A stretch of DNA of 64,000 nucleotides from Taibaiella lutea (GTDB lineage: Bacteria; Bacteroidota; Bacteroidia; Chitinophagales; Chitinophagaceae), in NCBI RefSeq assembly GCF_008629695.1, contig NZ_VWSH01000002.1, positions 651,410 to 715,409 of the forward strand. Direction: 5' to 3'. The position numbers and the translations under genes were made by a program. Positions 18,414 to 31,167 of this stretch are shown one piece after another. Numbering within the stretch: the stretch's first letter is position 1; the number at the start of each line of letters is the position of its first letter. The notes under the pieces were generated by a model. The model saw only the letters and a list, made by a program, of their open reading frames with translations. It did not search any database and was not told the DNA's origin.

Positions 18414-19511
18414 ATGATAAGCCAATCATTTTTACTGCCTTTTAATAAAGCAGTTCAAGAAATTACTGACATAGAATATTTGAATGTCAATACGAAAAAC
18501 CTAATTGTTTTTCCTTTGTCTGCCAATGCAGCGCAACAGGAAATTGCAAAGAAAAATATTTTCAATTCGTTTAAGGCCCTTTTGCCATCTGATATTAAAT
18601 CAAAGCCGGTTCAGCTCACATTATTTTGGGATAAGAGTCAGCTTCAGATTTGCAATCGTGGTATATTTTATTTTAATGACGAGACTATATTGCCGGTTCG
18701 GTTTACTCCTTCTGAAGCATTGAATACATGGCATAGTGAATTGCTTGGGGATAAAACAGGGACTTTCTACTTTATTATGAATGGGCATCAGTGCAAAAAG
18801 CATGTTTATAATGAGATTTATCCGGAAAAACATCCTTTTGATGACATGGGAGCATGGATATATAAGCTTGCTCCTCTGGAATATAAAAATTCAGGTGACG
18901 CCAGTCTTAAAGCAACTTTTGTTGCACGGTACAGAGAATTGAATGTGCAGCAGGCAAGTGTAAATATAGAAAAGTTAAAAAAGCAATGGTCTGAACTTTT
19001 ATTTACAGCGAATTTGAAAGGCAATGCTGCTTTGGAGTGTAAAGAGGTTTATAATACTTTTCAGGAAGAAACCGGCCTTGCATTTCCTGAAGAATTAAAG
19101 ATGATGCTTGATAACTGTAATGGCGTAAAAGCGTTTTTAAATAATACCGAATTTTTATCCGGCGACAAGGTATTGGAAGAGTGGAAAAACTGGAAAGCCA
19201 TTTATCAAACTTCTAACTACATGAATCTGATAGATGAATATCAATATAAAAACAGGAGCGAAAAAACAGTGCCGATGTATGTAAATCCATTCAGGATTCC
19301 ATTTATTACTGATGGCGGAGGGAATTTTATCGGCATAGATATGTTACCGAACTGGGCAGGAAAAATTGGTCAAATCATTGCATTCGGAGTTGATGAAATG
19401 GCAATAAGGTATGTGGCATCCGACATGAATGATTTCTTACAGCAATTTCTTGATGGTAAGAATCCTATGAATAATGATAAACTGAAAAGGCCTGTTACTA
19501 TGTATGTTTAG
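18414..19511 (+). CDS. SMI1/KNR4-family protein
   Basis: A 365-aa protein. The second half (about residues 185-350) fits the SMI1/KNR4 (SUKH) fold: EETGLAFPEELKMMLDNCNGV, then FITDGGGNFIGIDMLPNW and a late VASDMNDFLQQFLDG. The N-terminal 170 residues are not recognised. SUKH proteins are often immunity proteins of polymorphic toxins, and no toxin gene is adjacent. A cellular role is equally possible. It lies 9 kb upstream of the island's last gene and 1 kb before the tRNA-Ser gene. Confidence 0.65.
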   Translation: MISQSFLLPFNKAVQEITDIEYLNVNTKNLIVFPLSANAAQQEIAKKNIFNSFKALLPSDIKSKPVQLTLFWDKSQLQICNRGIFYFNDETILPVRFTPSEALNTWHSELLGDKTGTFYFIMNGHQCKKHVYNEIYPEKHPFDDMGAWIYKLAPLEYKNSGDASLKATFVARYRELNVQQASVNIEKLKKQWSELLFTANLKGNAALECKEVYNTFQEETGLAFPEELKMMLDNCNGVKAFLNNTEFLSGDKVLEEWKNWKAIYQTSNYMNLIDEYQYKNRSEKTVPMYVNPFRIPFITDGGGNFIGIDMLPNWAGKIGQIIAFGVDEMAIRYVASDMNDFLQQFLDGKNPMNNDKLKRPVTMYV

Positions 19512-20570: not shown

Positions 20571-20655
20571 GGAGAGATGGCAGAGTGGTCGATTGCGACG
20601 GTCTTGAAAACCGTTGACTGTTACAGGTCCGGGGGTTCGAATCCCTCTCTCTCCG
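20571..20655 (+). tRNA. tRNA-Ser (anticodon UGA)
   Basis: An 85-nt class II tRNA. The acceptor arms GGAGAGA (20571-20577) and TCTCTCC (20648-20654) pair perfectly. The anticodon TGA is at 20605-20607 in the loop CTTGAAA, with a long variable arm and the T-loop GGTTCGAATCC. CCA is not encoded. A terminator follows at once, and then an accessory island. tRNA-Ser 3' ends are common integration sites for mobile elements. Confidence 0.96.
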
Positions 20656-20760
20656 CTGAAATGATAAAACCCGCTACCGTAGCGGGTTTTATCATTTGAT
20701 TCATTTTGATGAATTTTCTTATTGCATTCATTACGAAGCATTTAGGGTTCGAATCCCGTT
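20638..20760. repeat. Direct-repeat copy A: tRNA 3' end, terminator and T-arm-like tail
   Basis: The tRNA-Ser 3' end is followed by the hairpin AAAACCCGCT/AGCGGGTTTT (20663-20693, likely the tRNA terminator) and, 79 nt from the hairpin start, by GGGTTCGAATCCCGTT (20745-20760), which looks like the T-arm of a tRNA. Copy B at 24645-24776 has the same parts at the same 79-nt spacing. This is probably one edge of an insertion beside the tRNA gene. Confidence 0.75.
20663..20693 (+). terminator. tRNA-Ser terminator hairpin
   Basis: GATAAAACCCGCTA and TAGCGGGTTTTATC pair around a CCG loop, immediately downstream of tRNA-Ser. Confidence 0.8.
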
Positions 20761-20885
20761 GGCTGAAAATATCTATCGCATCAGTTTTTCTAAATACTGT
20801 TTACATATACCAAAGCTCGTTTGGTAGTATTAAATATTACATTTCTTATTTTACCTTTGAAAATCAGTTAATATACTAATTTTCT

Positions 20886-23800
20886 ATGAGTAACTTTCAA
20901 TTTGCAAAGCCTAAAAATATTATTGAATTAGAAAAGAAGCTAAATATAGTGATTACTGCCGGCGGTTATTCCAAAGACAATGAACATCATTATGTGCAAA
21001 ATGCCGATGGGCAGGTTGTTGAACTTCATCTACATGGCATAGACGGAAAGTATCTTCCCAATCTAGTTGGATTTAATTCTTTAGTCAAACTTAGTCTTGA
21101 ACATTCTAGTTTCACTAACATAACATTCATAATTAAATTGGCTCAGAATTTAGAATACCTAAGCTTAGCCGGTAATCAAAATTTGGAGCAAATTTGGGAA
21201 ATTGGACGATTAACTAAGCTCAAGCATTTAGATATATCAAAAACAAAAGTGTGGGATCTAAGTCCACTTTACGACTTATTGCAAAATAGTTCATTCAAGG
21301 TAACATGTGATTATGAAAATATAATCTATCCTCAATTGCTAAATGGTTCTTTTACCTCACAAGAGTCAATGGTAGTTTGGTTTAAGAAACATTATGATCT
21401 TGCAAACTCGATTATTGATGAATGTTATGTTGCTGGTTCGAAGACAATAGATTTAGGCTTTTGTGGTATTACGGACCTAACACGCTTCCCCCAACTATTC
21501 CAATGTACGCATTTAGAAGAATTAATTTTAAGTAATGAATATGCTAATTATAATGACAATAGTTGGTATAGGGTTGTTAGTAGCAATGCAAATATCGGCT
21601 ACCCAAACAATATTTTCCGAATTCCCAACAAACTTAAGCTTTTGAAAAATTTAAAGCGAATATACTGTAGTGGGGATTGGAAAACTGAGGATGGCAAGTG
21701 GAACCGTTGGCGACTTCGTTATTTTAGAATCTTCACTAAACTAACTCAACTAGAGTTTTTAAATGTGAGCAATAATGAAGTAAATAATATATATAGGCTA
21801 GACCTACTTCAAAATTTAAAAACGCTCCATGCAAATAATAATAATATTAAAGAGGTGAGTGTTAATGGGGAACTACCCCAAATGACTGAATTGTTTATTA
21901 GCAACAATTTTATTCAAGACGTTTCATTTCTAAACTACTGTCCAAACATTACAACAATTGATCTTCACTCTAATCAACTTAAAAATCTTCAAAATATCAG
22001 GAATCTAATTCAAAGGCTGCAAATAAGTGATTCAAAATGGGCTCTGAAGACTATTGGAGTAGCAGAGAACAAGAAATTACGCCTTCCACCACTTGATGTT
22101 ATTGCCAATGGAATGGATGCTGTAATGGATTATTTTAATCGATGGGAACAGGAACAAGAACTAGATTTACCATTGGTTATCAATAATGACATAAAGGTGA
22201 TTTTGGTAGGAAATAGCGGTGTAGGAAAAACGACTCTCGCTCTTTGGTTAACTAGTGGAGGTAAAAAATTAAATCAGTTATCAACAACTTGGTTTAACAG
22301 AATACCATGGCAAGAGACAATAAATGGCCGAAAATATAATCTTCGTCTTTTTGACTTTGGTGGACAGGAATACTATCACGATACACACTATTTATTTTTC
22401 ACACAAGACGCAATCTATCTCACATTATGGGATAATAATCCATATGAATTGACTAAAATCGGAGAACCAGGAAATGAATTAATTGGATATCCGGTCGAAT
22501 ACTGGCTTGATTCAATTTCCTATTTTACGGGCAGAAGAAAGATAGCAAGTGGAGAGGCACAAGTACGGAAGTTGGTACTCGAAAAGGAGAAATTACAATC
22601 TGGCAATGTTGAAGTAAGTAGTCAAATTTTGGAAGATGAATCGTCAAAGAAAAATCAAGAACGGAATACATTAGTTTTCCAAAGCAAGGTTGATACATAC
22701 AAGAATATTGAATTTTTAAACCAACAAAAGCTTTCAAGAAAATACGGTTGGATTGCGGATTTTTCAAATTTTTCCGTTAAAGAGGATCGTGGACTGAAGC
22801 ATGTCAAGGATAAGATTTTTGAACTAATTGACGATATGCCAATAATTCAAAGACCACTATTGGGAACTTGGGGTGCCATTAAAGAGCATATAGAAAAGCA
22901 CGGTAATAAACGAAAAAATGAATTGACAATTCGCAGATTTCAAAACTATTGCAATAAAGTTATTAGGCAAATGCCAGAGTTGGAAACGGCAAGTAAACAG
23001 AAAATTGATAGATTAGTATTCAATCGCCAAAATACAATTAGCTTTATTCAATATCTTAGTACAATAGGGTTAGTGCTGTATTTTCCTGAAAATAAAGAAC
23101 TCGCAGATAGAGTTTTCATTAATCAAAATTATCTTGTCGAACATATTCATAATATTCTTTTGCAGCTTGCTCAAAAAAATGGTGTAATTGAGAAATCTGA
23201 AATTACTGCAACTAAGCCTAAAGTGCTTAATGAAAAGGAGATTCAGACTCTAATAAATGTAATGACACATTTTAAAATTGTTTTTAGTCACCCAGTTAAA
23301 ACAGATCTTCTAATTGCGCCTTTATACCTACCATCGAAGCCGTTATCTGGAATACAACTTTTTTTGTCTCAGTTTAAAAAGCCGCTTTTCCGGTATCAAT
23401 TCAAGGGCTTCATCCATCGCTCAGTTGTATTGGAGTTCTTTAGTAGTTTCGGTTCGAAAATCTTGAATGGAGGCTTAGATAATGCCCCATATTATTTTTG
23501 GAAAAACGGTGTTGTCTTAAAAGATAATGTTTCAGAAGAGATTATTTTGGTGTCTTTCAATAATGATAACGATTCAAAAGAATATAAAGGCTACATAGAT
23601 GTTTGCTCTCTCACTGGTAAAAAGGGCAATTTTAGTGATGAAGTTTTAATTGCACTGGACTCAATCACCAAAGACAGAAATGTTGATAAGGCCGTATTTG
23701 CATCAAATGGAAATTGTGTGCCGCTGAAAGATATTATCGAAGCTGCAGAGCTGCAACATTACGTTTTCAAATATAACCACAACTATTATAAGCTTGTGGA

Positions 23801-24371
23801 TTTTAAAGAATACTTAGATAAACCCTTAAAGATGAAAAATTTATTTATTTCATATTCTAAAGATGACTTAACCATGGTCGATGAATTCAAAAAACATCTT
23901 AGTGCGCTTCAAAGAGATGGAAAAGTTGGACATTGGTATTGTACAGAATTAATTGCTGGTGAAGAGTGGAATGCCTCTATACAGAGACATTTTGAAGAAT
24001 CGGATATTATTTGTTTTATGGTTAGCCCAAACTTCATGCATACAGATTATATTTTTGAGTATGAAATTAAAAAGGCCCTTGAAAGAAAGAAAACCGAACC
24101 TCAATTAAAAATTGTTCCGATTATTCTGGATTTCTGTAGGTGGACAACTGAAAAATATAATTTAGGAACTTATACAGCATTGCCTTATACCGCTAAGCCA
24201 GTCTCAGATTTTCCGAACAAAAATATGGCTTGGTATATAGTCGCAGAGGCGCTTCGAGTAATGATTGATGATGATAAAATACCACCCGGCGCAGAATTTT
24301 ACACAAGCGAGCGTTTGCCAAAGGATGTACAGGAGATTTATAGAAGGATAAGTAGAAAAGAAATAAGCTAA
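20886..24371 (+). CDS. LRR-Roc-COR-TIR (Roco) signalling/defence protein
   Basis: A 1161-aa multidomain protein. Residues about 50-410 hold leucine-rich repeats (LEYLSLAGNQNLEQI, LEFLNVSNNEV, ITTIDLHSNQLKNL). Residues about 436-660 are a Roc GTPase: P-loop GNSGVGKTT (442-450), switch motif DFGGQEYYHDTH near 488, and an NKxD-like SKVD near residue 600 after a charged insertion. Residues about 660-975 are a COR-like region. Residues 983-1120 are a TIR domain (LFISYSKDDLTMVDEF, IICFMVSPNFMHTDYIFEYEI, whose last Glu fits the catalytic Glu of NADase TIRs). Bacterial TIR proteins often deplete NAD+ on infection, so this may be an NLR/Roco-like immune sensor. That role is inferred. It is bounded by the two direct-repeat copies. 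Confidence 0.85.
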   Translation: MSNFQFAKPKNIIELEKKLNIVITAGGYSKDNEHHYVQNADGQVVELHLHGIDGKYLPNLVGFNSLVKLSLEHSSFTNITFIIKLAQNLEYLSLAGNQNLEQIWEIGRLTKLKHLDISKTKVWDLSPLYDLLQNSSFKVTCDYENIIYPQLLNGSFTSQESMVVWFKKHYDLANSIIDECYVAGSKTIDLGFCGITDLTRFPQLFQCTHLEELILSNEYANYNDNSWYRVVSSNANIGYPNNIFRIPNKLKLLKNLKRIYCSGDWKTEDGKWNRWRLRYFRIFTKLTQLEFLNVSNNEVNNIYRLDLLQNLKTLHANNNNIKEVSVNGELPQMTELFISNNFIQDVSFLNYCPNITTIDLHSNQLKNLQNIRNLIQRLQISDSKWALKTIGVAENKKLRLPPLDVIANGMDAVMDYFNRWEQEQELDLPLVINNDIKVILVGNSGVGKTTLALWLTSGGKKLNQLSTTWFNRIPWQETINGRKYNLRLFDFGGQEYYHDTHYLFFTQDAIYLTLWDNNPYELTKIGEPGNELIGYPVEYWLDSISYFTGRRKIASGEAQVRKLVLEKEKLQSGNVEVSSQILEDESSKKNQERNTLVFQSKVDTYKNIEFLNQQKLSRKYGWIADFSNFSVKEDRGLKHVKDKIFELIDDMPIIQRPLLGTWGAIKEHIEKHGNKRKNELTIRRFQNYCNKVIRQMPELETASKQKIDRLVFNRQNTISFIQYLSTIGLVLYFPENKELADRVFINQNYLVEHIHNILLQLAQKNGVIEKSEITATKPKVLNEKEIQTLINVMTHFKIVFSHPVKTDLLIAPLYLPSKPLSGIQLFLSQFKKPLFRYQFKGFIHRSVVLEFFSSFGSKILNGGLDNAPYYFWKNGVVLKDNVSEEIILVSFNNDNDSKEYKGYIDVCSLTGKKGNFSDEVLIALDSITKDRNVDKAVFASNGNCVPLKDIIEAAELQHYVFKYNHNYYKLVDFKEYLDKPLKMKNLFISYSKDDLTMVDEFKKHLSALQRDGKVGHWYCTELIAGEEWNASIQRHFEESDIICFMVSPNFMHTDYIFEYEIKKALERKKTEPQLKIVPIILDFCRWTTEKYNLGTYTALPYTAKPVSDFPNKNMAWYIVAEALRVMIDDDKIPPGAEFYTSERLPKDVQEIYRRISRKEIS

Positions 24372-24895
24372 ATCAATTTTATATTTTCATCCTTTTGAAC
24401 GCTTTTGGTATGTATTGGAGATTCGATCAAGCGAAGATTTGAGGATACGCATTTTACCGAGATGCATGTTTAATCAGGTATTGACTGAGAGCTATGTTCT
24501 CAATACGGCAGAGGCTCTACAATCTCTAATCAGTTACACTAGCTAGCTCAATAAAGGTGATCATAGCGGTAAAACTTCAACGATAAAGTCAATAACTATA
24601 TTCATCTCAAAAAAAATCAATTTCCGCCAAATCCCTTACCAATTGGTTCGAACATTGATACATTCCCCCGCAGAAATGAATAAAACCCGCTCTAGTAGCG
24701 GGTTTTGTCGTTTAAGCTACTTTGCTTATTTCTCTTATCCCATTCATTATAAGACATTTAGGGTTCGAATCCCGTTCACCCTATATATTCCGTTTTAAAA
24801 AACTACAGATAGGCATTTGCATCAAAAAAATTTACATTGTTTTGTTAATATTTTTATCTTTACGACGATATAAACCATTAACCAACTTAGACTTA
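24372..24895. other. Intergenic spacer between Roco and ABC-3C modules
   Basis: About 520 bp with no convincing gene. Its second half holds direct-repeat copy B. An open frame from 24722 runs through the repeat into the next gene but has no coding character there. The first 270 bp show no structure I recognise. Confidence 0.6.
24645..24776. repeat. Direct-repeat copy B: degenerate tRNA-Ser 3' end, hairpin and T-arm tail
   Basis: GGTTCGAA (24645-24652) and then a decayed CCCCCGCAGAAATGA (compare CTCTCCGCTGAAATGA after the real tRNA) are followed by the hairpin AAAACCCGCT/AGCGGGTTTT (24682-24706), a CATTCATTA segment and GGGTTCGAATCCCGTT (24761-24776). The hairpin-to-T-arm distance is 79 nt, exactly as in copy A. 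This marks the border between the Roco gene and the next module. Confidence 0.75.
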
Positions 24896-25819
24896 ATGTA
24901 TAATACACGGTTCGGCTCGTTCGATGGAGATTCGTGGGAACAACTAATGCAAATTTGTTTCCGGCTTAAATATGAATCAGAACATTACCAACCTATTCCA
25001 GCGTCTTCTGGGGATTGCGGAATAGAAGGATTTACCAAGACAGGTAAAGTGTTCCAATGTTATTGCCCTGACAATAACATAACTTCAACTGCTTTATACG
25101 AGAAGCAAAGAGATAAAATCACAAGGGATTTAGGAAAGCTGTCCGTTTATGTAGACAGGTTAGGACGTTTTTTGAATGGAGTAAAAATCAAAGAATGGAT
25201 ATTTGTAACTCCCGAATATAGGATGAATGATCTCATACTGCATTGTAATAATAAAAAGAAAGAACTCTTAGATTCGAATTTGAATATTATCGACCCTTCT
25301 TTCCAAGTTTTAATCCATGACATTGATAATTTCATCGCCCAAATACCGATAGCTCTTAACAGTAATGCACAAAAATTGACCATTGGCCCAGACATTACTC
25401 CTGTTTCTGCTATTATTACTTGGAGAGAACAAGAGATTGATTTGGTAGGTAATGCTATTAGGAAACATAATAAAAGATTCTCTGATAACCCTCCCAATTT
25501 AGAAGACAAAGTTAACCAACTCACAGAAGCAACTATCAAAAGTTATTTTGACAGAGAATCAATATTGCGAAGATGGCAAAATTTGCATCCACAGGATTAC
25601 GACCGCTATTTGACTTTAATATCCCAAATTGAAGAAGAAGTTACAGAGTTATGCATGTTCCCTACTCAAAACAACAACCAGCTATATCTGAGCTTTAGAA
25701 CACTCGTAAAGGAACGTCTAAAAGATAATTTCGCTTATTTAGACGAAACAACTATTACAACACTTATGAATGGCGCTATTGCAGATTGGCTGCTTAGATG
25801 CCCATTAGACTTTGAATAA
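24896..25819 (+). CDS. ABC-3C-type effector protein with Mrr-like nuclease fold (putative)
   Basis: A 307-aa protein read from the ATG at 24896; the 58 codons upstream are repeat DNA. The N-terminal 130 residues look like a restriction-endonuclease (Mrr/PD-(D/E)xK) core: SWEQLMQICF with its Glu, SSGDCGIEGFTKTGKVFQCY with the Asp, then KIKEWIFVTP. The usual ExK/QxK lysine reads QCY, so catalysis is doubtful. The rest (about 180-307) is helical and would be the coupling (CTD) part. Gene order with a small helix-rich protein and an SMC-like ATPase matches ABC-three-component systems. The assignment is by pattern only. Confidence 0.55.
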   Translation: MYNTRFGSFDGDSWEQLMQICFRLKYESEHYQPIPASSGDCGIEGFTKTGKVFQCYCPDNNITSTALYEKQRDKITRDLGKLSVYVDRLGRFLNGVKIKEWIFVTPEYRMNDLILHCNNKKKELLDSNLNIIDPSFQVLIHDIDNFIAQIPIALNSNAQKLTIGPDITPVSAIITWREQEIDLVGNAIRKHNKRFSDNPPNLEDKVNQLTEATIKSYFDRESILRRWQNLHPQDYDRYLTLISQIEEEVTELCMFPTQNNNQLYLSFRTLVKERLKDNFAYLDETTITTLMNGAIADWLLRCPLDFE

Positions 25820-25820
25820 C

Positions 25821-26282
25821 ATGGAAGGCATTATTAAGCATTTAAGTTTTACCAAGCGAGATATTCCACTACCGGCTGACTACCGTTCTCTGTATAAGAT
25901 CGGCCACATTTTAATGATATTGTCACTGAGTTGTCGATCCGGAAAGTCGTCAATGATGAAGTTACATTTTCTTTGTTGGTCTATTAAAAACAAAAAGAAT
26001 ATTGGTATTGTGTCTAATTGGATCAATACAGGATTTAGAGGAGATATTCATATCTGGGGAGTTGAGCCGACTGTTAATAGAGCCATTGCATTTGCCATAG
26101 GCGACAACTTAATAAATAATATTGGCGGAGAATATACTATAACAGAAAGAGGCGATTCGCTTTTCAAATTGATGAAAAAAGAAAAAGATCTTTTTAATAA
26201 AGAAAAGGAATTCCTCATTTGGCTTGGGAAAAACACAATAACTGAACAAAAAGTCAAAGAATTGGCAAGCAAATTTCAATAA
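25821..26282 (+). CDS. ABC-3C-type middle component (putative)
   Basis: A 153-aa protein starting 1 nt after the preceding stop (ATG at 25821), which indicates translational coupling. The N-terminal segment DYRSLYKIGHILMILSLSC, followed by RSGKSSMMKLHFLCWSIKN, is helical and of winged-helix type, as in the 'middle component' proteins of ABC-3C systems. The C-terminal half holds GDNLINNIGGEYTITERGDSLFKLM, a winged-helix wing-like segment. A small adaptor between effector and ATPase is inferred. It ends 3 nt before the start of the ATPase gene. Confidence 0.55.
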   Translation: MEGIIKHLSFTKRDIPLPADYRSLYKIGHILMILSLSCRSGKSSMMKLHFLCWSIKNKKNIGIVSNWINTGFRGDIHIWGVEPTVNRAIAFAIGDNLINNIGGEYTITERGDSLFKLMKKEKDLFNKEKEFLIWLGKNTITEQKVKELASKFQ

Positions 26283-26285
26283 ACC

Positions 26286-28351
26286 ATGCTTCAACTACAA
26301 GCCCTTCAACTTGAAATAAATACAACAAACGGACTTTACGGGTCACCATTCCTTTTGCTCCTGGTCTCAATATAATAAGAGCGAACAATACTTCTGGCAA
26401 AAGCACTTTGTTTCAATCCATATTATACGCCTTGGGATTTGAAGAGCTCATTGGGGGAAAGAATGAGAAGACAATGCAATCCGTTCTCAAGGATGCAGTT
26501 GTTGATGATGAGATCAACCATAGAGTTACCCAATCTGCTATTTTGCTCCAAATTTCGAACGGGCAATCTTCAATAACGATCAGACGAAGCGTTATCATGG
26601 AACATAGAAAATCGCAACTGGTTGATGTTTTCTATGGTCCACAGATCACAAGCTCGGAAGATTATGAGTTGCGGCAAATGTATCTTCATGACAAAGGAGC
26701 GGCATCTGATGAGCTTTATGGGTTTCATGTATTCCTAGAAGAGTTCTTGGGTTGGAAATTGCCAGATGTACTAGATACTATCGGTAATCGAACTAAACTT
26801 TATCTTCCGCTCATCGCCCCTGCATTTATCATCGAACAAAAATCAGGATGGTCATCCTTTTTTGCCACCATTCCTTATTATGGTGTCAAGAATTCAGAAG
26901 AAAGAGTCATTGAATTTCTTTTGAATCTAGATGTTTTCAAAAATGAGCAAGACAAAATTCTACTTAATATAGAAAAGCGCGTTTTACAGGAAAAGTGGAC
27001 AAACTTATATTCTGAATTTAAGCGTATGGGAGAGCGTTCAAGTGGTGAATTGCAAGGATTGGAAAGTGAACCCAAAATAATCAACAATCTATATGAAATA
27101 TATTTTCGATTTCACCGCAATAATAAATCTTACCTGATCTCTGAGTTAATCAACGAACTACAAAACGAATTTGAAGAATTGAGTACTTCGACGGAAACTA
27201 CTGTAGGAGCGAATTTGAATAAGAATCAAGATCGCCTCAACGAGCTTACCACTAGCTTAACTCGTGGCAACCACAGGTATGAGCAAATGGAAAATGAAAT
27301 TCTACTAGAAAAAGAGCGTTTAAAACAATACATTCAGCAAAAGAAAAACGTAGAAGAAGATTTAGCAAATAATAAATCGGCAGATAAAATGCTTAAATTG
27401 GGTGCTACTATTCAATCGCCTTTATCAAGTGAAACTTGTCCGACCTGTGGGCAAGACGTAGATGGAGCATTATTGCCAAGTAATATTCATCAATCACCCA
27501 TGAAAATTGATGAGAATATCAGTTTTTTGACTTCGCAACTCAAAATGCTGGAAGTATTCATTGCTGGTCAAAGAAAAAAGATACTTGAGAAAGAGACAAC
27601 AAATAGTGAGTATGGCACTTACCTTTCAAATCTAAGACAACAAATTCGTAGCATTAAAAGAGATTTGATTTCCGACGAAAGACTTCCATCTGAAGAGTTG
27701 ATCGAACGTAAGATTAATACTAGGCGCCTTCTAGCTCTTTACACAGATTTGAACAGCAATATAGAAGAATTGAAGAAACAATTGAAGCAACTTTCTAATG
27801 ATTGGGAAATTATAAAAAGGACAGAAGGTAATCTTGCGGGCGATTTCTTTAGTGCTCTTGATAGAGAAAAAATAGGATATTTGGAAACGACATTCTTATC
27901 GTTACTTTCAAAATTTAATTATAGGAGTAAGGCTAAGGAGGCAATTAAAATTTCTATGGAAAAATATGTTCCAGTTATTGAAGTACGTCTTCCGAATGAA
28001 AAACCTAAGTCCTACGATATACGATTTGATTCTTCAGGAAGCGACCATATACGTTGCATGTGGGCTTATTATATCGCCTTGCTTATTACATCTAATAGGA
28101 AGAAGGGTAATCATCCTATGCTTCTGCTATTTGATGAACCTCAACAACAATCCGCTTCGACTGGAGACTTCCATGAATTCTTAAAAGAGTTGTCACTCCA
28201 GCAGGACTCACAAAGTATTGTCTTCGCTTCGTTTCAGAATTCATTAACCGATTTCAATGCCGCAACAGCAGGGATAAATTTTCATCATATCGAGGGAGAT
28301 GGACGATTTATAAAAAAGCTGGCCGATCAAAATCAAATTGACCTAAAATAG
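26286..28351 (+). pseudogene. ABC-3C-type SMC/Rad50-like ATPase, frameshifted at codon 19
   Basis: The gene begins at the ATG at 26286 (MLQLQALQLEINTTNGLYG) but the frame runs into stops within 31 codons. The -1 frame entered at 26342 continues VTIPFAPGLNIIRANNTSGKST, a proper Walker A, and stays open to 28351. One extra G in the GGG at 26340-26342 would restore a protein of about 688 aa. It has coiled coils, a zinc-hook-like CPTCG (nt 27437), a signature DSSGSDHIRCMW and Walker B MLLLFDEP. The alternative start at 26408 (TTG) lacks Walker A and would be dead. Sequencing error, phase variation and real loss all fit. Confidence 0.8.
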
Positions 28352-28401: not shown

Positions 28402-29193
28402 ATGAAAGCTTCACTAAAGCCTGGCCAAGTTCTTTCATCAACTACTGTAAGAATTGAAGCAAACTCTAAAAGTATAACAAAGGCAGGAACAGGTTTTTTC
28501 TATTCCATTGGTGATAAGGATAAGTCTGAATATGTTTCTGTTATCATAACAAATTACCATGTATTGGAAGGCGCAGAAAATATTTATTTAGTTTTTACTC
28601 TATCTGATAAGTTGGGAAACAGCACAGGTAATTTCACCAAATATAAAGTCAATGATATTCAAACAGCGATTGTAAGGCATCCAGATCCCGCTGTCGATTT
28701 ATGCGCAATATCTTTATATCCAATTGTTGAAGATATGCGTACTAAATATTCGCAGGAAATTTACACCCATTACATTACCAAGTCGATAATTCCAAGTTCG
28801 CTTGTACTTCAACAAATGGATTCTATCGAGGAAATTATCATGATAGGCTATCCAAATGGATTGTGGGATGAACAAAATAATTTACCAATTTGCAGGAAGG
28901 GTATTACAGCTACTAGTCCTCAGATTGACTACAATGGTAAACAGGAATTCTTAATTGATGCAGCTTGTTTTCCTGGATCTTCAGGCTCTCCAGTGTTTTA
29001 TTCAATGAAGGCTGATGGAAATATGATAGGGGAAATCATATTACTTGGTATTCTTTCTAAAGGTCCCAAAATGACGTTCAAAAATTTATCAGTCCCCATT
29101 AACTTGGGACTTGTAATCAAAGCTTCGCGATTAATTGAATTAGAAGCCGAAATAATTAAAATGGTTGAATTTGATGCTCAGAAATTCACCTAA
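28402..29193 (+). CDS. Cytoplasmic trypsin-like serine protease
   Basis: A 263-aa protein with the chymotrypsin/trypsin-fold triad read as His53 (ITNYHVLEG), Asp99 (PAVDLCAI) and Ser194 (PGSSGSPV). There is no signal peptide, so it should act in the cytosol. It stands 50 nt after the ATPase frame and 78 nt before a second trypsin-fold gene. Trypsin-like proteases without export signals are recurrent effectors in bacterial conflict systems, where they may activate a partner by cleavage. Whether it belongs with the ABC-3C genes or with the following fusion is not decidable here. Confidence 0.82.
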   Translation: MKASLKPGQVLSSTTVRIEANSKSITKAGTGFFYSIGDKDKSEYVSVIITNYHVLEGAENIYLVFTLSDKLGNSTGNFTKYKVNDIQTAIVRHPDPAVDLCAISLYPIVEDMRTKYSQEIYTHYITKSIIPSSLVLQQMDSIEEIIMIGYPNGLWDEQNNLPICRKGITATSPQIDYNGKQEFLIDAACFPGSSGSPVFYSMKADGNMIGEIILLGILSKGPKMTFKNLSVPINLGLVIKASRLIELEAEIIKMVEFDAQKFT

Positions 29194-29271
29194 TAATCTC
29201 TTTCACATCTTAGCTAAGATTCATATTTTACCTAAACTTCCTCTCGTTCGTTTTTATTAATTTTATGTTCA

Positions 29272-31167
29272 ATGAAAAATCGGCTATTAGAATATATAGT
29301 AAGATCTACCCAACAAATTCTTAATTTATCAATTACAGACTGTGAACCTATTGGCTGCGGAAATGGATGTTTAATTGTCTATCAAGATCGACAGTTCCTG
29401 ATTTCCGTTCAACACGTTACAGAGTTAAAGAATAGTCAGTCAGCAATTAATTTGTATACAGAAATGGGGGGAGTATCGAAATTTTATTTCCCCGGAGCTT
29501 TCAACTATGTAGATATGTACTCATTGGAACTTGAAACAGAGAATCCTGAATTAAAGAAATTAGAATCTTTAGATATAGGATATTTAGAGTTAGGCGAGTA
29601 TCTAGACATTAATCAGCCCCAGGTAGTCTTTAAAGAATTGACGATCTCAGGAGGCAAAAAAACTCCTGTTCCTACCAATCTTAGTTATGATTTAAAGAAG
29701 TGCGAAAACTATTTTCTTTACGGAAGAGTGGTAAATATAGATAGGGATAGAGAAATTTTACATTATGAAGAAAGGCTTGAACAAAATATAAAATACGACG
29801 GAAAATTTGGCCCTTATGAGAGATTTGTAATAGATCGTCCTATTACACAAGATTCGGAATTTAAGGGTATGAGTGGTGCTCCTATCTTTTCAGAAACAGG
29901 GGAACCTGTTGCATTTCTTACCAATGGTTTTTTAGATGAGAACTACATTTACGCATTTTCAGCAAAGGAAATAAAAAGATATCTGGATATCCACATAGAT
30001 AAAATAGGTCGAACAGAACACTTAGATCTTGTTTTTGACGAACCAAATAAATTAAATGAAGATTGGGAAGATTTCAGTACTGAGTGGGATTTAAACGATC
30101 AAAATTTGGCCAATGAAAATGATTTTAGAAAAATTAATTTCAACAAGCATACTGGATTAGGCGATTCAACCCGAAAGAGATTTGTCGAATATGCGGTATA
30201 TTATTCTACAAATCGTCGTCTCAAGTCTGAATCACCTGTCTTATTCGACAACAAAAGAGGTGAAAGATTGCATTTGGGCCATTGCGCTGTAAGTATTCCA
30301 TATAATCATAAGGTTGGTACAATTGACGGCCTTGCACCATTAATAAAGAATTTTTTTATTGCAGATCCAAATAAGGATATGATTATTTTATCAAATGATC
30401 TATTCGATAGTAATGTGTTTATTCAAAAGATTTCAGAAAAAATTAGAGTAAATAATGATAAAGATATCTTGCTTTTTGTTCATGGATTTAAAGATTCTTT
30501 TGAAGATGGCATTCTTAGAGCGGCTCAACTTGGTTACGATTTAAACTACAAGGGCCCAGTTATAAGCTACTCCTGGCCTACAATGGGGTCCTTCTTTGGC
30601 TATGTTGCTGATAGTGATTCTGCTGAAATTTCTTCGAATTATTTAAATGAGTTTCTTACTTACTTAATTGATAATATTGGAGAAAATAGGATTAATATTA
30701 TAGCCCATAGCATGGGTAGTGTTGTTTTGTCAAAAGCTCTCTTGAAATTAAAAAAACAAAACCTCTTCCCAAGTGCAATTAATCAAATTATCCTTGCTGC
30801 ACCCGATATTGATCGGGACCTCTTTATCAACCATATAATGCCAGAAATACAAAGCCCACAGCACTTGACTTTATATGTATCTAAAAATGATTGGGCAATG
30901 AAACTATCTAGGTTTATTAGACATAGTTACAATAGATTAGGAGAAGCTGGGGAAGAAATGGCAATAATTGAAGGAGTAGATACTATTGATGCCTCAGGAG
31001 TTGAAACGGATTTAATTGGGCATAGCTATTTTTCTCAAAAAGAATCATTGATAAATGATATCCATATGACATTCCTAGGACACAAGCCGCCACAACGCAG
31101 GCTGGATCAGAAACAACTAGTAATTAGAAATGAACATAAAATTTACTGGACATTCAAAAAGATCTAA
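29272..31167 (+). CDS. Trypsin-like protease fused to an alpha/beta hydrolase (DUF900-like)
   Basis: A 631-aa two-domain protein. The N-terminal trypsin fold (about 1-245) has His48 (SVQHVTEL), Asp101 (LDIGYLEL) and Ser201 (KGMSGAPIF). The C-terminal alpha/beta hydrolase (about 315-631) shows LLFVHGFKDSF (oxyanion loop), the nucleophile elbow AHSMGS with Ser480, and candidate Asp540 (KNDWAM) and His584 (GHSYF). It resembles DUF900 hydrolases. No signal peptide. Such a hydrolase could attack lipid or another ester, with the protease domain as sensor or trigger; that is inference. It is the last gene of the island. Confidence 0.82.
   Translation: MKNRLLEYIVRSTQQILNLSITDCEPIGCGNGCLIVYQDRQFLISVQHVTELKNSQSAINLYTEMGGVSKFYFPGAFNYVDMYSLELETENPELKKLESLDIGYLELGEYLDINQPQVVFKELTISGGKKTPVPTNLSYDLKKCENYFLYGRVVNIDRDREILHYEERLEQNIKYDGKFGPYERFVIDRPITQDSEFKGMSGAPIFSETGEPVAFLTNGFLDENYIYAFSAKEIKRYLDIHIDKIGRTEHLDLVFDEPNKLNEDWEDFSTEWDLNDQNLANENDFRKINFNKHTGLGDSTRKRFVEYAVYYSTNRRLKSESPVLFDNKRGERLHLGHCAVSIPYNHKVGTIDGLAPLIKNFFIADPNKDMIILSNDLFDSNVFIQKISEKIRVNNDKDILLFVHGFKDSFEDGILRAAQLGYDLNYKGPVISYSWPTMGSFFGYVADSDSAEISSNYLNEFLTYLIDNIGENRINIIAHSMGSVVLSKALLKLKKQNLFPSAINQIILAAPDIDRDLFINHIMPEIQSPQHLTLYVSKNDWAMKLSRFIRHSYNRLGEAGEEMAIIEGVDTIDASGVETDLIGHSYFSQKESLINDIHMTFLGHKPPQRRLDQKQLVIRNEHKIYWTFKKI

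What the first reader, a model, noticed from the sequence alone, without database searches (positions are those of the whole stretch)
20886..24371. Bacterial LRR-Roc-COR-TIR protein as a candidate immune sensor
Seen: leucine-rich repeats, a Roc GTPase (P-loop at 442-450, DFGGQEYYHDTH, SKVD), a COR-like part and a TIR domain at 983-1120 that keeps a plausible catalytic Glu. Known: TIR domains in bacterial defence degrade NAD+, and Roco GTPases are regulated by dimer/monomer switching. Inference: GTP-gated TIR NADase defence. The location in a defence-type island supports this.
Basis: partly seen in the sequence, partly recalled or inferred. Interest (0 to 1): 0.75.

Follow-up and report, generated by a model that had tools for sequence, protein, structure and literature searches.

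The report
Bacterial LRR-Roco-TIR candidate immune receptor
This bacterial gene joins a possible sensor, an on-off GTP switch related to the Parkinson's protein LRRK2 and a domain that probably destroys NAD+, so it is probably an anti-virus cell-suicide receptor, but it belongs to a class that had already been predicted and nothing has been tested.

Summary
Window 20886-24371 is one intact ORF (1161 aa) with LRRs, Roc, COR and a TIR domain that keeps its catalytic-position Glu (E1060). Profiles, AlphaFold models and structure comparison agree. The defence reading is plausible but untested. The class is not new: Kaur et al. 2021 (PMC8195603) already predicted LRR-AP-GTPase(Roc)-COR proteins with at least 24 C-terminal domains, TIR among them, as counter-invader systems. 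Added here: (i) a patchy Bacteroidota orthologue group, 37-41% identical in Roc-COR; (ii) module exchange: the window's TIR type sits on distant Roc-COR chassis, the same chassis carries another TIR type, both clade tests are rejected, and the N-terminus varies; (iii) the gene stands alone between two tRNA-Ser/terminator-like direct repeats after an intact tRNA-Ser, in a hot spot whose contents differ in 3 of 3 congeners; (iv) at least 5 of 10 near homologues, the window included, have known defence genes nearby (hand-picked scan). A broader neighbour comparison with a random control was not clean. Most likely a single-gene, GTP-gated TIR NADase abortive-infection receptor; no ThsA-type STALD match in the genome, so not Thoeris. 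New member of a known kind.

The parts
20571..20656 (+). Intact tRNA-Ser(tga); anchor of the hot spot
   Evidence: ARAGORN, Rfam RF00005 59.3 bits; tRNA-Ser next to the MsrA-type gene in 3 of 3 congeners
20664..20760 (+). Left copy of the att-like direct repeat: terminator hairpin plus tRNA T-arm-like end
   Evidence: the repeat finder D1, 97 nt, 79% identity to the right copy; its 19-nt end has 2 matches in the window (up to 3 mismatches allowed), 0.01 expected
20886..24371 (+). LRR-Roc-COR-TIR gene, 1161 aa
20886..22175 (+). N-terminal LRR region (aa 1-430); aa 1-175 is the most variable part among orthologues
   Evidence: Pfam LRR_4; per-domain identities
22176..22853 (+). Roc GTPase (aa 431-656), P-loop 442-450, DFGGQ 490-494
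   Evidence: Pfam Roc; MbRoco2 4wnr Z 30.2 over 424-815; G442, G447, K448, T467, D490, G493, Q494 the same in 31 of 31 rows of A5
22860..23825 (+). COR region (aa 659-980); COR-A by Pfam, COR-B by structure comparison only
   Evidence: Pfam COR-A; COR 3dpt Z 18.7 over 659-980
23832..24272 (+). TIR domain (aa 983-1129)
   Evidence: Pfam TIR_2, PADLOC ThsB, Z 14.1 to RPS4-TIR
24063..24065 (+). Codon of the candidate catalytic Glu E1060
   Evidence: conserved 48/54, 29/31, 28/28
24680..24776 (+). Right copy of the att-like repeat, preceded by what looks like a degraded tRNA 3' end

Best explanation
A single-gene, intracellular immune receptor. The variable N-terminus and LRRs bind a phage-derived or infection-altered ligand (inferred). 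Binding shifts Roc-COR from a GDP-bound, probably dimeric, autoinhibited form to a GTP-bound open form (this cycle is published for CtRoco, inferred here). That frees or assembles the C-terminal TIR, which cleaves NAD+ using E1060, and the infected cell stops growing or dies (inferred). The gene behaves as a stand-alone cassette (shown: the repeats that bracket it; inferred: integration at tRNA-Ser), and its N-terminus and TIR are exchanged between lineages (domain trees and identities). Weak point: TIR NADases usually need TIR-TIR assembly (recalled), whereas CtRoco becomes a monomer on GTP, so assembly by TIR-TIR or LRR contacts after opening has to be assumed.
For: Domain profiles and folds. 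TIR profile A6 matches in the PDB include Cat1 3.8e-11 and AbTIR 1.8e-6; the Glu is aligned in the printed Cat1 and 7uxr alignments. P-loop and switch II residues in 31 of 31. The same chassis class carries CHAT, caspase C14, DUF4365, Schlafen AlbA_2 or EAD11 in place of the TIR in 7 of 9 non-TIR proteins scanned. Module exchange: AU p 3.1e-6 and 9.8e-28. Setting: Lamassu-like genes next door; tRNA-Ser hot spot; bracketing repeats; orthologues scattered over four Bacteroidota families. Near homologues beside defence genes: L181 ThsA 8.6e-191 and bSEFIR, L184 LmuA/B/C, L185 three ThsB-type genes and a caspase, L188 CBASS cyclase and E1-E2 (genes picked by hand).
Against: No activity or phage data. 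The broader neighbour comparison was not clean: among 150 neighbours of Roco-TIR genes the commonest PADLOC match was ThsB in 4, and the random control of 127 genes held PtuA/PtuB (Septu) matches and mad3 in 4. For L180, L182, L183, L186, L187 no defence neighbour was identified (not scanned one by one; L186 not in the neighbour set). No full-length relative on plasmids (0 of 49 records with a place covering 80% of the query) and no match in phage records. No tyrosine integrase match on the window's contig. 6 of 54 Roco-linked TIRs lack the Glu. CtRoco monomerisation does not by itself explain TIR assembly.
Confidence: 0.55

Rival explanations
1. The TIR makes a signal (a cyclic ADP-ribose-type molecule, as ThsB does) for a separate effector instead of depleting NAD+ itself.
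For: The best PADLOC model for the TIR is ThsB (1.9e-29). The homologue L181 (Chryseobacterium rhizosphaerae) is followed by a ThsA gene and a bSEFIR gene, and L185 lies near three ThsB-type genes.
Against: No STALD match in the own genome nor in 7 of the 8 other genomes searched (those of L180-L183 and L185-L188; L184 not held). By eye, no partner gene recurs beside L180-L188 (ORF lists).
Confidence: 0.2
2. A GTPase-regulated signalling protein with no immune role, for example in stress or surface behaviour; the defence-like setting is only a hot spot effect.
For: Little is known about functions of prokaryotic Roco proteins (PMC6337361, passage); the broad neighbour comparison was not clean.
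Against: Effector-type C-termini (caspase, CHAT, Schlafen AlbA, EAD11, TIR) on the same chassis class; module exchange; patchy distribution (1 of 396 genomes of the class matches Roc-COR at 1e-40, the own one); hot spot; defence genes beside at least 5 of 10 near homologues.
Confidence: 0.12
3. The TIR is a non-enzymatic assembly domain that recruits another protein.
For: 6 of 54 Roco-linked TIRs lack the Glu; animal TLR and MyD88 TIRs also match the fold.
Against: E1060 kept in 48/54, 29/31 and 28/28; the best structural matches are plant TIRs, several of them NADases (fold; activity recalled).
Confidence: 0.07
4. An accessory part of the Lamassu-like system encoded right after it.
For: LmuA-like ORF begins 350 bp downstream on the same strand; the orthologue L184 also has LmuA/B/C-like genes beside it.
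Against: An att-like repeat lies between the two in the window; in L184 the Lmu genes lie on the other side and on the other strand; L181, L185 and L188 have other defence genes as neighbours.
Confidence: 0.06

Closest known systems
LRR-AP-GTPase(Roc)-COR-effector counter-invader systems (Kaur et al. 2021 eLife 10:e70394, PMC8195603; section 15 read in full, passages of others)
   Same: N-terminal LRRs, Roc+COR, variable C-terminal domain; TIR, caspase and EADs are named there
   Different: That section treats the class as a whole by sequence analysis; this orthologue group, the TIR exchange and the tRNA-Ser cassette are not in the parts I read (figures and source data not held). The genome here has one COR-A match, not many copies.
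CtRoco (Chlorobaculum tepidum; 6hlu, 8r4b, 3dpu) and MbRoco2 (4wnr)
   Same: LRR-Roc-COR fold: 4wnr Z 30.2, 3dpu Z 26.4; 6hlu E 1.4e-32
   Different: The window protein carries a C-terminal TIR; 19-27% identity in the aligned Roc-COR
Bacterial TIR NADases Cat1 and AbTIR
   Same: TIR fold and, for Cat1, an aligned Glu: Cat1 E 3.8e-11, Z 11.7; AbTir Z 11.9
   Different: Cat1 is gated by cyclic tetra-adenylate (cA4 in the PDB titles), AbTIR by other parts (recalled); neither by Roc-COR
Plant TIR-NLRs (RPS4, RUN1, RPP1)
   Same: TIR, LRRs and an NTP switch in one chain (plant domain layout recalled); TIR Z 13.6-14.1
   Different: Switch is a Ras-type GTPase, not an NB-ARC ATPase; LRR first and TIR last; similar logic, no shared membership
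Eukaryotic Roco proteins with TIR (Trichoplax, figure legend of PMC4104024; Chondrus TPR-ROCO-TIR, passage of PMC11378527)
   Same: Roc-COR and TIR in one protein
   Different: Eukaryotic; not compared here at sequence level

Membership tests
Roco (Roc-COR) proteins | Roc GTPase followed by COR | tested here: met
   Pfam Roc and COR-A over cut-off; 3dpu Z 26.4 over 402-978
Roco (Roc-COR) proteins | GTP binding/hydrolysis with nucleotide-dependent dimer-monomer cycle | not testable with these tools
   P-loop and DFGGQ residues the same in 31 of 31 rows; no biochemistry possible
TIR NADases | TIR fold with Glu in the catalytic position | tested here: met
   E1060 in 48/54
TIR NADases | NAD+ cleavage | not testable with these tools
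   no assay
LRR-AP-GTPase-COR-effector counter-invader class (Kaur 2021) | LRR + AP-GTPase + COR + variable C-terminal effector | tested here: met
   definition
LRR-AP-GTPase-COR-effector counter-invader class (Kaur 2021) | activity against invaders | not testable with these tools
   a prediction also in the section of the paper that I read
Thoeris | ThsA (SIR2 + STALD) partner of a ThsB TIR | tested here: not met
   no STALD match (PF18185) in the own genome; 1 of 9 genomes searched has one
STAND NTPases / bacterial NLR-like (NACHT, NB-ARC) | STAND-type ATPase module | tested here: not met
   NACHT E 0.23, 11.7 bits against a cut-off of 26.7, at the P-loop only; nSTAND3 16.6 against 27.2; Roc and COR-A above cut-off
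Lamassu | gene encodes LmuA, LmuB or LmuC | tested here: not met
   Roco-TIR matches no Lmu model at E <= 1; the three downstream genes do

The most novel reading that the evidence does not exclude
A GTPase-gated (not ATPase-gated) TIR immune receptor that spreads as a one-gene cassette between tRNA-Ser-derived attachment-like repeats, and whose N-terminus and TIR are both exchanged between lineages while the Roc-COR switch stays: a bacterial counterpart in logic of plant TIR-NLRs, built on the chassis of LRRK2. As far as the library searched here shows, it would be the first Roco-gated defence shown to work.
Probability: 0.4. Interest if true: 0.72.

Novelty: new member of a known kind. Interest (0 to 1): 0.5.

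Why it matters
The 2019 Roco review says very little is known about what Roco proteins do in bacteria and archaea, and that all prokaryotic members identified by then were of the LRR-Roc-COR group (PMC6337361, passages). A compact one-gene LRR-Roc-COR-TIR gives a direct test: phage protection, NAD+ loss, and dependence on P-loop and E1060. If it works, it gives a functional read-out for the LRR-Roc-COR switch shared with LRRK2, and places GTPase-gated receptors beside the ATPase-gated ones in bacterial immunity.

Tried and rejected
Defence enrichment: PADLOC on 150 of 150 listed neighbours of Roco-TIR genes, on 127 of 127 genes of 20 arbitrary regions of the same genomes and on 106 neighbours of the best homologues. 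The tool lists only the 25 commonest families (of 141, 196 and 140), so no rate can be given; the control held PtuA/PtuB matches and mad3 in 4. The third set was chosen by hand (99 of 191 listed neighbours plus 7 extra genes near L184, L185, L188), as were the 10 genes, so their Thoeris, CBASS, IetAS, DpdF, Lmu and methyltransferase hits illustrate and are no rate.

Flanking repeats as a class property: 10 of 92 Roco-TIR loci (20 of 112 dropped for short flanks) against 3 of 71 control genes, not convincing; I claim the cassette for this locus only. No further good copy of the tRNA-Ser 3' end was found in the window. Tyrosine integrase: 4 Phage_integrase matches in the genome, none on contig C2, which holds the window; other recombinases were not searched. 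A single-sequence search of the PDB with the TIR found nothing; the profile did. Plasmids and phages: no full-length relative. The 54 of 109 TIR share is no rate: 17 regions came from a query that held the TIR, and the 80 order-level places favoured long frames. A weak Csm2 match was ignored. The DUF4062-like look of L058 is recalled; Pfam gave no C-terminal hit for L058 and L104. Literature: ten searches; in their listings I saw no experimental test of a Roco defence protein; listings were capped, no bioRxiv library is held and most subscription papers are missing.

They identified defence neighbours of L181, L184, L185 and L188. I therefore moved two odds slightly (no immune role 0.13 to 0.12, Lamassu accessory 0.05 to 0.06) and corrected the second gene after L181 from TIR to bSEFIR.
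Full report
1. What is there. The ORF at 20886-24371 is intact, 1161 aa, far longer than chance allows. Pfam places LRRs, Roc (437-520), COR-A (711-813) and TIR_2 (987-1088) above their curated cut-offs; PADLOC's best model, for residues 983-1128, is the Thoeris ThsB TIR. The full-length AlphaFold model (31-row alignment A5, mean pLDDT 82.4, pTM 0.66) aligns over Roc-COR with MbRoco2 (4wnr, Z 30.2, rmsd 2.9, 312 residues), CtRoco (3dpu, Z 26.4, rmsd 3.4, 456) and LRRK2 (8fo9, Z 26.8, rmsd 3.6, 452), up to residue 980. The TIR modelled alone (28-row alignment A6, pLDDT 84.7, pTM 0.83) matches plant TIRs (RPS4 Z 14.1, RUN1 14.0, RPP1 13.9), SPARTA (12.3), AbTir (11.9), Cat1 (11.7) and SARM1 (10.7). 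The TIR profile's best PDB sequence match is Cat1, E 3.8e-11, with the Glu aligned.

2. Conserved machinery. G442, G447, K448, T467, D490, G493 and Q494 are the same in 31 of 31 full-length rows. E1060 is Glu in 48 of 54 Roco-linked TIRs of the sample, 29 of 31 rows of A5 and 28 of 28 rows of A6.

3. How widespread. In the own family, 28 of 294 genomes (own included) have a match to the Roc-COR-TIR query at 1e-10, though many rows match the TIR part only. COR-A occurs in 64 of 393 genomes of the order, own included. Nine of the family-level proteins were scanned with Pfam: 9 of 9 have Roc and TIR_2 above cut-off; 8 of 9 an LRR match at E 0.01 or better (7 above cut-off); 7 of 9 a COR-A or COR-B match (4 above cut-off). 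In 396 genomes of the class only the own genome matched Roc-COR at 1e-40. The own genome has a single COR-A match.

4. Effectors are exchangeable. Of 109 distinct Roc+COR proteins gathered (biased sample, window included), 54 carry a TIR after COR and 55 do not. Nine of those 55 were scanned: the C-terminus is CHAT in two, caspase C14 in one, DUF4365 in one, Schlafen AlbA_2 in one, EAD11 in two, and unassigned in two; one of the nine has TPRs in place of LRRs. Within TIR-Rocos the TIR itself moves: L033, L034, L035 and L188 have a TIR 64-70% identical to the window's on Roc-COR units only 16-25% identical, while L132 and L185-L187 have a Roc-COR 37-41% identical but a TIR only 41% identical. 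On the TIR tree the chassis group is rejected as a clade (p-AU 3.1e-6); on the Roc-COR tree the TIR-type group is rejected (p-AU 9.8e-28). Caveat: groups were named after the identities had been seen, 35 rows were picked by me, and both trees hold long branches. Residues 1-175 are the least conserved (10-33% in L180-L187) while the LRR half next to Roc keeps 32-45%; in L180-L183 the N-terminus starts with a P-loop-like stretch (seen) for which Pfam gives no assignment above cut-off.

5. Where it sits. An intact tRNA-Ser lies about 230 bp upstream. In 3 of 3 congeners the DXP-reductoisomerase, M50-peptidase and MsrA-type genes (Pfam) and this tRNA-Ser are kept, but the roughly 10 kb after it hold no relative of the window's island genes; the only window match there is a 30% one to ORF 43866 in one congener. 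A 97-nt direct repeat (79%) brackets exactly this gene, 20664-20760 and 24680-24776; it consists of a terminator hairpin and a T-arm-like end, and the right copy follows what looks like a degraded tRNA 3' end. The terminal 19-mer has two matches in the window against 0.01 expected. In the own genome the only other match over 44 nt to this element is that right copy. In one congener a tRNA-Ser 3' end with a similar unit lies about 1.3-1.4 kb after the tRNA-Ser, besides further terminator repeats. I read these as attachment-site scars of an accretion hot spot; no tyrosine integrase was found on this contig. Downstream of the window gene follow LmuA-, LmuC- and LmuB-like genes (6e-35, 3e-19, 6.7e-90), then a trypsin-like candidate (PDC-S45, 2.2e-84). 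Among the ten near homologues (window, L180-L188) at least five have a PADLOC defence gene within about 2.1 kb: the window, L181 (ThsA, bSEFIR), L184 (LmuA/B/C-like), L185 (three ThsB-type genes, also a caspase), L188 (CBASS cyclase and E1-E2); these genes were picked by hand and the other five homologues were not scanned one by one.

6. Mechanism. Published work on CtRoco reports dimers without GTP, monomers with GTP, and a large conformational change with the LRR-Roc linker as hinge (abstracts of PMC5714945 and PMC11052575). By analogy, ligand binding on the LRR side would open the protein and release the TIR to cleave NAD+. Shown: domains, motifs, fold, exchange, location. Inferred: ligand, GTP gating, NADase, cell arrest. 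Open: how monomerisation could lead to TIR assembly. Not Thoeris: no STALD match in the genome; 1 of 9 genomes searched has one.

7. Known or new. Kaur et al. 2021 (PMC8195603; section 15 read in full, passages of others) already describe LRR-AP-GTPase-COR proteins with at least 24 C-terminal domains, TIR, caspase and EADs included, as predicted counter-invader systems. Kaur et al. 2020 (PMC7159879, passages) place AP-GTPase-COR in vWA ternary systems. Wauters 2019 (PMC6337361, passages) put all prokaryotic Roco proteins known by then in the LRR-Roc-COR group. Eukaryotic Roco-TIR proteins are on record (PMC4104024 and PMC11378527, passages). In the listings of ten searches of the held library I saw no experimental test of a Roco defence protein. 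So: new member of a known and, as far as seen, untested kind, with module exchange and a tRNA-Ser cassette as the added facts.

Noticed in passing
window 24722-28351: LmuA-, LmuC- and LmuB-like genes in a row: a candidate Lamassu-type system. The TTG start of the LmuA-like ORF lies inside the right att-like repeat, so the real start is probably downstream.
   Followed up: partly
window 28402-31167: Trypsin-like protein matching PADLOC candidate PDC-S45 (2.2e-84), followed by a 631-aa protein with a DUF900 alpha/beta hydrolase part; possibly a further defence pair.
   Followed up: no
L168:10311-11730 and window 20664-24776: tRNA-Ser 3'-end and terminator-derived repeats pile up after the same tRNA-Ser in two congeners with different cargo: an accretion hot spot without a recognised tyrosine integrase on the window's contig.
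   Followed up: partly
L119:4151-9970: Two Roco genes side by side, one with a C-terminal TIR and one with DUF4365: perhaps paired receptors with different effectors.
   Followed up: no
L180-L183, first 170 aa: A P-loop-like N-terminus replaces the N-terminal LRRs in four close orthologues; no Pfam match above cut-off.
   Followed up: partly
L181:10693-13853: A ThsA gene (8.6e-191) and a bSEFIR gene (2.6e-63) directly follow the Roco-TIR orthologue of Chryseobacterium rhizosphaerae.
   Followed up: partly
L184:2421-6198: LmuB-, LmuC- and LmuA-like genes beside the Roco-TIR orthologue of Pedobacter panaciterrae, on the other strand: the second Roco-TIR/Lamassu pairing seen.
   Followed up: partly
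window 18414-19511: SUKH/SMI1-KNR4 domain protein just left of the MsrA-type gene and the tRNA-Ser; no tblastn match in the congener regions compared.
   Followed up: no
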